From NCBI GenBank assembly GCA_019637875.1, contig JAHBUW010000011.1, forward strand, positions 1 through 64,000: DNA of 64,000 nucleotides. Reading direction: 5' to 3'. Every line of letters begins with the position of its first letter. Position 1 is the stretch's first letter. The notes under the pieces are model-generated. The model saw only the letters and a program-made list of their open reading frames with translations. It searched no databases and was not told the DNA's origin. Source of the stretch: Pseudobdellovibrionaceae bacterium (GTDB taxonomy: Bacteria > Bdellovibrionota > Bdellovibrionia > Bdellovibrionales > Bdellovibrionaceae). Of this stretch, positions 42,498 through 44,215 are shown in pieces. The position numbers and the translations under genes were made by a program.

Positions 42498-43316
42498 TTG
42501 AAACCCATCTCGAAACGCGCCGACAAACCGGCGCGTCCCGTTTTCGATAAATATGACTATTACAGTAAATCCGTGCAATCGACCGAGACCGACGTCGTCT
42601 TCTTGCGGGATGTGTACAAAGAGTGTCGCGGGGTCGCTCCGGAATCGATGCGCGAGGATTTCTGCGGGACCTACGCGCTGAGCGCGGATTGGATTCGCTT
42701 GAGTCCGAAACATACCGGCGTCGGGGTGGATCTGGATCCTGAACCGCTCGAATACGGGCATGCCCACATCCTGCCCAAACTTTCGCCCGCACAGCGCGAA
42801 CGTTTGAAGATCATGCGTGGGAACGTTCTTGATCCAAATCTGCCGAAGGTGGATCTGGTCGCGGCGATGAATTTCTCGTATTTCATTTTCAAAAATCGCG
42901 GACAGATGCTGGGTTACTTCAAAAACGTGCACCGTACTTTGAACGAAGACGGCGTTTTCGTGCAGGATCTGTTCGGCGGAAGCCTCTGCTACGACGCGAA
43001 CGAAGAGAAAACCAAACACAAGGGCTTCACCTACTACTGGGATCAGAAAAGTTACGATCCCGCGACGAATTACGCGCAGTTCGCGATCCACTTCAAAGTG
43101 GACGGCGAAAGAAAGCGCGAAGACGTTTTCACTTACGACTGGCGGATGTGGAGTATTCCCGAGCTGAAAGAAATCCTGAAAGAGGCGGGCTTCCGCCGCA
43201 CCCATCTTTACTGGGAAGGGACCACGAAGGCCGGCGGTGGCGATGGGAAGTTCAAGCGTGTCGAGCATGGCGAAAGTTGCCAGAGCTGGATCGCGTACCT
43301 CGTCAGCGAGAAGTAG
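42498..43316 (+). CDS. Class I SAM-dependent methyltransferase
   Basis: 272 residues from a TTG start with AAGGAT upstream; no suitable ATG exists. SAM-binding motif I is MREDFCGTYALSADW, with GVGVDLDPEPLEYG as the following acidic strand. VDLVAAMNFSYFIF and ...NEDGVFVQDLFGG are motifs III-IV. It is rich in Tyr and Phe in the second half, which may form the acceptor site. The substrate is unknown. It sits 16 bp after the E1 beta gene, probably in the same transcript, and is followed at once by a large inverted repeat. Confidence 0.85.
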   Translation: MKPISKRADKPARPVFDKYDYYSKSVQSTETDVVFLRDVYKECRGVAPESMREDFCGTYALSADWIRLSPKHTGVGVDLDPEPLEYGHAHILPKLSPAQRERLKIMRGNVLDPNLPKVDLVAAMNFSYFIFKNRGQMLGYFKNVHRTLNEDGVFVQDLFGGSLCYDANEEKTKHKGFTYYWDQKSYDPATNYAQFAIHFKVDGERKREDVFTYDWRMWSIPELKEILKEAGFRRTHLYWEGTTKAGGGDGKFKRVEHGESCQSWIAYLVSEK

Positions 43317-43318
43317 GG

Positions 43319-43517
43319 AACGGCTCCCCGATGATGAGCCATGTCGCTTCCTTAGGGTTCCTGAAAGAACTTTTCTTTCGCTCATTTGGGGCACGGCCAT
43401 CCTGGCCTCACCGCAGAGGCTTACGCCATCCGGGCGCTGCGGAGGCCCCAACTGACCGAAAGAAAAGTTCTTCCAGGAACTCCGTGAAAACGAATTGCTC
43501 ATCATCGGGGAGCCGTT
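43319..43517. repeat. Large imperfect inverted repeat (~200 bp)
   Basis: The outer arms are 21 bp and perfect: AACGGCTCCCCGATGATGAGC (43319-43339) with its complement at 43497-43517. After symmetric unpaired gaps of 17 and 16 nt, a 24-bp arm at 43357-43380 pairs with 43457-43480 with one mismatch. After gaps of 5 and 5 nt, TTGGGGC (43386-43392) pairs with GCCCCAA (43445-43451), and CCGCAG with CTGCGG closes the top. It follows the methyltransferase stop by 2 nt and holds no gene. The rest of the gap, 43518-43645, has only a small hairpin ACGTCTC/GAGACGT at 43542-43560. Confidence 0.9.
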
Positions 43518-43645: not shown

Positions 43646-44080
43646 GTGCTGAAGAAATCCATTCATTTTGGAATCATGCTGACGGTGGGCCTGAGCGTTT
43701 CGATGGCTCTGGCGAAGCCCGCGCCTAAAAAATCGGGCCGCGTGCCCGCGTCGGCGACCAAAGCCTGCCCCGAGACGGGCTGCGCTTGTGATGATCTGAA
43801 AAGTTTCGCGGCGAAATGTGAAGTGAAGACCCACTCAGAGTACATCGCGCTCGCGCATCATCTGAAGCTGGATCAAGATGAGCGTCGTCGGGCCGAGCTG
43901 AAGGCTTGTCCCCATTCGGCGGCGGCGGAAACCTGCCGCGCCAAAGCAAAGCGTCAGCTCACCCAGAAAAAAATGCGCGGCACTCCGTTCAAACCGAGCC
44001 TCATGACCGAGCTCGGCAACTTCGGCATCGAACTCGTCGAACAATCTTCGAAGAATCCGCGCTCGCCAGCCTCGCGATAA
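43646..44080 (+). CDS. Small exported Cys-containing protein
   Basis: 144 residues from GTG; a later Met (residue 11) is an alternative. Signal peptide core FGIMLTVGLSVSMALA. The mature part has six Cys (ACPETGCACDD, AAKCEV, KACPHS, ETCRAK), many Lys/Arg and helix-favouring residues. No family is recognised. The stop TAA lies inside the first unit of the 27-bp tandem repeat, so the C-terminal residues SR are made by repeat sequence. Confidence 0.65.
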   Translation: MLKKSIHFGIMLTVGLSVSMALAKPAPKKSGRVPASATKACPETGCACDDLKSFAAKCEVKTHSEYIALAHHLKLDQDERRRAELKACPHSAAAETCRAKAKRQLTQKKMRGTPFKPSLMTELGNFGIELVEQSSKNPRSPASR

Positions 44081-44214
44081 GCGAGGCCATCTCAGCAATC
44101 GCGATAAGCGAGGCCATCTCAGCAATCGCGATAAGCGAGGCCATCTCAGCAATCGCGATAAGCGAGGCCATCTCAGCAATCGCGATAAGCGAGGCCATCT
44201 CGGCAATCGCGATA
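44073..44214. repeat. 27-bp tandem repeat, five copies plus a partial
   Basis: The unit starts CGCGATAAGCGAGGCC and ends CTCAGCAAT; full copies begin at 44073, 44100, 44127, 44154 and 44181, and a partial one at 44208. They are identical except A to G in the fifth. The unit contains TAA, which is the stop of the gene upstream, and ATCGCGAT dyads where copies meet. The repeat fills the whole gap between two convergent genes. Copies abut with no spacers, so it is not a CRISPR. Because 27 is a multiple of 3, frames with open repeats (AISEAISAI forward, MASLIAIAE reverse) appear by chance. Confidence 0.95.
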
Positions 44215-44215
44215 A

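What the first reader, a model, noticed from the sequence alone, without database searches (positions are those of the whole stretch)
43319..43517. ~200-bp imperfect inverted repeat after a methyltransferase gene
Two long pairs (21 bp perfect, 24 bp with one mismatch) plus inner pairs are separated by gaps of nearly equal length on both sides (17/16 and 5/5), as if a once perfect palindrome had diverged. It has no ORF, starts 2 nt after a stop codon and is too large for a terminator. It could be a non-autonomous mobile element (MITE-like), a structured RNA or a DNA-folding site.
Basis: partly seen in the sequence, partly recalled or inferred. Interest (0 to 1): 0.62.

Follow-up and report, generated by a model that had tools for sequence, protein, structure and literature searches.

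The report
Mobile Y-capped palindrome of predatory bacteria
A 199-base imperfect palindrome behind a gene is one of at least 14 scattered copies, in this Bdellovibrio-like bacterium, of an apparently undescribed mobile DNA element whose conserved Y-shaped tip sits on a long stem whose sequence differs between copies while its two sides stay complementary.

Summary
It is one of at least 14 dispersed copies in its own genome; a covariance model finds relatives in 26 of 61 genomes of the same family (Bdellovibrionaceae) and 36 of 291 across the phylum. Every copy has a conserved cap of about 52 nt that folds into a three-way junction, carried on a 30-60 bp stem. Stem sequences differ between copies but stay complementary (95.6% of pair cells paired, 66.7% in shuffles). 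Four own-genome copies, and a fifth by eye, are flanked by perfect 9-11 bp direct repeats exactly outside GAAACTG-type terminal inverted repeats. I read these as target-site duplications, so the element is mobile and MITE-like; the window copy itself has none. The few stem mismatches are strand-biased (G.U 63 against A.C 14; G.A 63 against C.U 5), so one folded single strand appears to be selected: minus in the window. Whether it works as RNA or ssDNA is open. In one relative a HUH Y1 transposase gene is flanked by inverted copies. No Rfam match, and no published description found in the papers searched. I rate it a new variant of bacterial extragenic palindromic mobile elements.

The parts
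43319..43517 (-). whole element; strand given is the one whose fold appears to be selected (strand X)
43319..43339 (.). outer stem, left arm (end of the element; diverged from the GAAACTG ends of the younger copies)
43497..43517 (.). outer stem, right arm
43355..43392 (.). inner stem (P1), left arm, interrupted by mismatches
43445..43482 (.). inner stem (P1), right arm
43393..43444 (-). conserved Y-shaped cap (three-way junction)
43395..43407 (-). cap hairpin P2 (GGCC-ATCCT-GGCC; loop AGGAU on the minus strand)
43411..43442 (-). cap hairpin P3/P4 (loop CGGAU on the minus strand)

Best explanation
The palindrome is one copy of a non-autonomous, MITE-like mobile element of Bdellovibrionales, usually about 200 bp long. 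Shown: at least 14 dispersed copies; several copies end in terminal inverted repeats (GAAACTG...CAGTTTC) with 9-11 bp direct repeats directly outside; the copies fold into a long hairpin with a conserved three-way-junction cap, and the stems keep pairing while their sequence turns over. Inferred: a transposase acting in trans on the ends (the outer stem) inserted the copies into spacers, mostly behind genes; afterwards one folded single strand (minus in the window) stays under selection because something in the cell recognises the Y cap on its stem. Whether that strand is ssDNA or RNA is not settled. The window copy is probably an older insertion, since its ends have diverged and it has no direct repeat.
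For: Copies in the own genome. Direct repeats exactly at the ends of four copies and, by eye, a fifth. A locus filled in four Bdellovibrio species and empty in three. Covariation against shuffles and slid controls. Mismatch strand bias in 63 arm clusters. Cap conserved across genera and in about 20-30 copies in each of G053, G057 and G058.
Against: No autonomous partner with GAAACTG ends was seen in 0.79 Mb (20%) of the own genome. Direct repeats were found only in this genome; over all 118 copies the excess is modest (5 with at least 9 bases, 1.7 expected). The window copy has none. Many copies keep the same place across species, so movement is rare. In G010 the element flanks a HUH Y1 gene, and HUH transposition, by general knowledge, does not make 9-bp duplications.
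Confidence: 0.6

Rival explanations
1. It is the REP-like partner of a HUH (Y1) transposase: an oversized REPtron palindrome recognised and moved as folded single-stranded DNA on one strand.
For: In G010 a Y1 gene of the type aligned in A7 lies between copies of the element in inverted orientation with matching subterminal flanks, and pieces of that unit match 115 places in that genome. Close pairs are nearly always arranged head to head in the same sense. Folding matters on one strand only, with more G.A than in RNA terminators. The literature describes Y1 genes flanked by 'atypical secondary structures' (PMC6006769).
Against: The 9-11 bp direct repeats in the own genome. No co-occurrence of this Y1 type with the element over 61 genomes (16 of 26 against 25 of 35, p = 0.58). 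In the other loci examined the Y1 genes of this type do not have the element directly beside them.
Confidence: 0.2
2. It is a multi-copy structured RNA; the two cap hairpins would present GGA loops to CsrA, so that transcripts act as a sponge.
For: On strand X the P2 loop has GGA in 111 of 124 distinct caps and the P4 loop in 70 of the 98 in which it was recognised; contexts resemble CAGGA(U/A/C)G and ANGGAN as described for CsrA sites (PMC7652899). CsrA is found in 60 of 61 genomes of the family. The GU:AC ratio equals that of terminators.
Against: 28 P4 loops have CGA, and some copies have no GGA loop at all. No promoter enrichment upstream of strand X. No consistent orientation to neighbouring genes. 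The two copies found in the genome of HD100 size are not in the published table of attack-phase sRNAs (PMC3627812).
Confidence: 0.1
3. It is a passive palindrome kept perfect by template switching or gene conversion between its arms, without function.
For: Single-sided changes are very rare and paired changes are frequent between close species. At two Bdellovibrio loci the palindrome extends into the host terminator's 3' half.
Against: The interior loop and the cap stay non-palindromic. A mismatch bias of 12:1 for transversion-type mismatches is hard to get from mutation. The cap is conserved over the family and order.
Confidence: 0.1

Closest known systems
Bacterial MITEs and interspersed palindromes (Correia/NEMIS, ERIC, RUP, bcr1; from memory)
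   Same: About 100-250 bp, non-coding, dispersed between genes, hairpin-forming; some with terminal inverted repeats and target duplications
   Different: Conserved non-symmetrical three-way-junction cap; stems differ in sequence between copies but covary; strand-specific selection on folding; found here only in Bdellovibrionota
REP/BIME/REPIN elements with TnpA_REP (RAYT) (PMC6006769, PMC8266576)
   Same: Extragenic palindromes in many copies; close inverted pairs; a HUH Y1 gene flanked by copies in one genome; strand-specific
   Different: About 200 bp instead of 21-65 nt; conserved centre and variable arms; no GTAG foot recognised; direct repeats at the ends of own-genome copies
CsrB/RsmZ-type CsrA-sponge RNAs
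   Same: Hairpin loops with GGA in CAGGAxG or ANGGAN context
   Different: Only two loops per copy, one often CGA; very long stem; many dispersed copies; no evidence of transcription

Membership tests
MITE (non-autonomous TIR element) | Short, no own transposase, several dispersed copies | tested here: met
   14 copies by covariance model, about 200 bp, no gene inside
MITE (non-autonomous TIR element) | Terminal inverted repeats shared between copies | tested here: inconclusive
   GAAACTG ends are shared by the younger own-genome copies; older copies, the window's included, have other ends
MITE (non-autonomous TIR element) | Target-site duplication | tested here: met
   9-11 bp at four own-genome copies and one more by eye; not at the window copy nor in other genomes
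MITE (non-autonomous TIR element) | Autonomous relative with the same ends | tested here: inconclusive
   Not seen in 0.79 Mb of the own genome; the rest was not read
REP/RAYT system | Palindromes flank a Y1 (HUH) transposase gene | tested here: inconclusive
   Met in G010; not in the other loci examined
REP/RAYT system | GTAG/GTGG tetranucleotide at the 5' foot of a 21-65 nt hairpin | tested here: not met
   Element is about 200 nt; no such foot seen by eye in the aligned copies
Known RNA family (Rfam 15) | Match above gathering score | tested here: not met
   None in ten loci; in the window only a sub-threshold microRNA-precursor match, E = 0.14
CsrA-sponge sRNA | Several GGA loops | tested here: inconclusive
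   Two loops; GGA in 90% of P2 loops, CGA in 28 P4 loops
CsrA-sponge sRNA | Transcribed and bound by CsrA | not testable with these tools
   No expression data held; no promoter enrichment

The most novel reading that the evidence does not exclude
A mobile element whose recognised form is a folded single strand with a Y-shaped (three-way-junction) cap on a freely drifting, covarying stem, read strand-specifically by a HUH Y1 transposase: a single-stranded transposition signal larger than, and built differently from, the REP and IS200/IS605 ends I know of.
Probability: 0.2. Interest if true: 0.75.

Novelty: new variant of a known kind. Interest (0 to 1): 0.56.

Why it matters
It appears to be an undescribed repeat family of predatory bacteria and their relatives, with one to more than thirty copies in the genomes that carry it. 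Its stems change sequence between sister species while keeping their pairing. It gives a natural test of how long palindromes evolve, of what a HUH or TIR transposase recognises, and of whether folded single strands are selected in these genomes.

Tried and rejected
Own promoter for strand X: a block upstream of some G010 copies looked like a promoter by eye, but promoter scores do not exceed controls (5.31 against 5.31), so dropped. G.U scarcity as proof of DNA: terminators of these genomes have a similar G.U rate, so withdrawn. CsrA presence as support: CsrA is universal in the family, so uninformative. Presence or absence of the Y1 gene type against the element: no correlation. Replication-strand bias in G058: none seen, judged by eye. 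Distant-taxon hits from the pattern scan of all species: of 71 loci only one, a Bdellovibrionaceae genome, scores clearly with the model. A GAAACTG-ended transposon in the own genome: not seen in the 20% sampled. A first, more specific pattern scan found nothing.

Full report
1. Observation. The palindrome at 43319-43517 is real. The outer arms 43319-43342/43494-43517 are 96% complementary and the inner arms 43344-43392/43445-43493 are 82% complementary. Folded as a single strand the region reaches -125 kcal/mol against -74.9 +/- 4.6 for shuffles, z -10.8. It starts two bases after the stop codon of ORF 42498-43316, which has only a weak methyltransferase match.

2. Not unique. BLAST of the element against its own 3.98-Mb genome listed 15 places, three of which are reverse-strand repeats of copies already listed. 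A covariance model (R1) built on eleven aligned copies gave 14 strong copies and one weak candidate. The copies share a cap of about 52 nt, for example ACGGCCCTCCTGGCCTCGCCGCAGGGTCTTACGCCATCCAGGCGCTGCGGAG, and two arms of about 75 nt that are inverted repeats of each other within a copy but differ between copies.

3. Structure. The cap folds as a three-way junction: hairpin P2 (GGCC-NTCCT-GGCC) and hairpin P3/P4 (CCGCAG-7 nt-CGCC-ATCCA-GGCG-CTGCGG) on stem P1. Below lie a copy-specific inner stem, often an asymmetric interior loop, and an outer stem. On 30 copies from several genera, 95.6% of pair cells are paired against 66.7% in shuffles and at most 53% when slid. Twenty-four of 28 pairs show changes on both sides, and the covariation score is 0.674 against 0.148 (similar on 45 copies). 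The alignment was fitted to a model of this structure, so these counts lean towards it. The arms outside the model point the same way.

4. Which strand. I counted mismatches in the arms without favouring any mismatch type, then took one copy per arm cluster (63 clusters). On the strand opposite to the P2-first orientation the non-Watson-Crick cells are GU 63, AC 14, GA 63, CU 5, GG 10, CC 3. Binomial p is 1e-8 for GU against AC and 8e-14 for GA against CU. Mutation bias can hardly give 12:1 for transversion-type mismatches, so I infer selection on one folded single strand, called X; in the window X is the minus strand. As a calibration, terminator hairpins of these genomes show GU 29, AC 10, GA 4, CU 3 in about 1000 pairs. 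The GU:AC ratio agrees with RNA (p = 0.47); the GA excess does not (p = 6e-5; 0.013 without a cluster of GA positions). In the cap itself there is no GU/AC bias (4 against 7). RNA or ssDNA therefore stays open.

5. Mobility. At the ends of four own-genome copies the same 9-11 bases occur on both sides, directly outside the GAAACTG/CAGTTTC ends: AAACTAGAAG, TATCGAGTA, TGAAAGGCT, CGTTTTTATTT. A fifth copy, with an insertion beside its cap that probably hid it from the script, has CTTCATTTC by eye. Over all 118 copies the excess is modest (5 with at least 9 bases, 1.7 expected), because the others lack them; the argument rests on the exact position in this genome. The window copy has no such repeat and different ends, so I read it as older. 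In Bdellovibrio one locus is filled in four species and empty in three.

6. Distribution. R1 finds the element in 26 of 61 genomes of the family, and the broader model R2 in 36 of 291 of the phylum, all but one of them in the same family or order. The family is Bdellovibrionaceae: a G001 contig has the same length as JAHBUV010000001.1, a 'Bdellovibrionaceae bacterium'. A cap subtype with an extra hairpin has about 20-30 copies in each of G053, G057 and G058, so counts from the models are lower bounds. Of 71 loci found by a core pattern over all species, only that Bdellovibrionaceae locus fits the model well.

7. Context. Neighbouring genes, called roughly by ORF length, are convergent in 33 and divergent in 3 cases; co-directional neighbours run with the P2-first strand in 21 cases and against it in 17. 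A terminator-like hairpin on the P2-first strand lies within 150 nt on the left in 26 of 103 copies, against 3 in the mirror position (p = 2e-5). Behind rplL, nine Bdellovibrio species carry the element at the same place with widely diverged stems. In the genome of HD100 size and one other, that place has a palindrome with a different centre. There and at another locus the palindrome runs into the host terminator's 3' half, so template switching may also play a part. These samples include related copies, so the p-values are not fully independent.

8. A possible partner. Y1 (HUH) transposases occur in 55 of 61 genomes. One type (alignment A7; weak relative of TnpA_REP and IS200 proteins; matches IS608 transposase) is flanked in G010 by inverted copies of the element, and pieces of that unit match 115 places in that genome. 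In the other loci examined this Y1 type does not have the element directly beside it, and over 61 genomes the two do not co-occur. Quentin and colleagues describe Y1 genes flanked by 'atypical secondary structures' (PMC6006769); this may be such a case. The 9-bp duplications do not fit a HUH mechanism, so two ways of moving may be involved.

9. Conclusion. A dispersed, mobile, MITE-like palindrome with a conserved Y-shaped cap and covarying stems under what looks like single-strand selection. It is not in Rfam, and no description was found in the papers searched, which are open-access ones only. Copies and structure are shown; mobility rests on the direct repeats; the transposase and the role of the folded strand are inferred or open.

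Noticed in passing
window 44072-44215: Tandem array of a 27-bp unit, 5.3 copies at 99% (TCGCGATAAGCGAGGCCATCTCAGCAA), at the end of ORF 43646-44080 and before a phosphoribosyltransferase gene on the minus strand.
   Followed up: no
L324, L415, L419, L420, L437, L440 (own genome): A second palindrome family with GGTACC; in L324 two such hairpins flank a Y1 transposase gene, like a REP/RAYT pair.
   Followed up: partly
L161 and L169 (G010): Y-capped elements in inverted orientation flank pairs of small genes that look like toxin-antitoxin or AbiE-type genes; in L161 part of an element lies in a direct duplication. Gene names are by eye.
   Followed up: no
L289 (G036, rplL-rpoB spacer) and L292 (G045): Long palindromes at the same site but with a different centre (TTCGGACAGTCCTCGC...), possibly another cap class.
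   Followed up: no
L279 (G047) and L281 (G043): Where other Bdellovibrio species carry the Y-capped element, these two carry other inverted repeats (AGGTACCTGCTTCCC..., CGATCGGTCAAAAAGG...), as if the spot behind this terminator attracts insertions.
   Followed up: no
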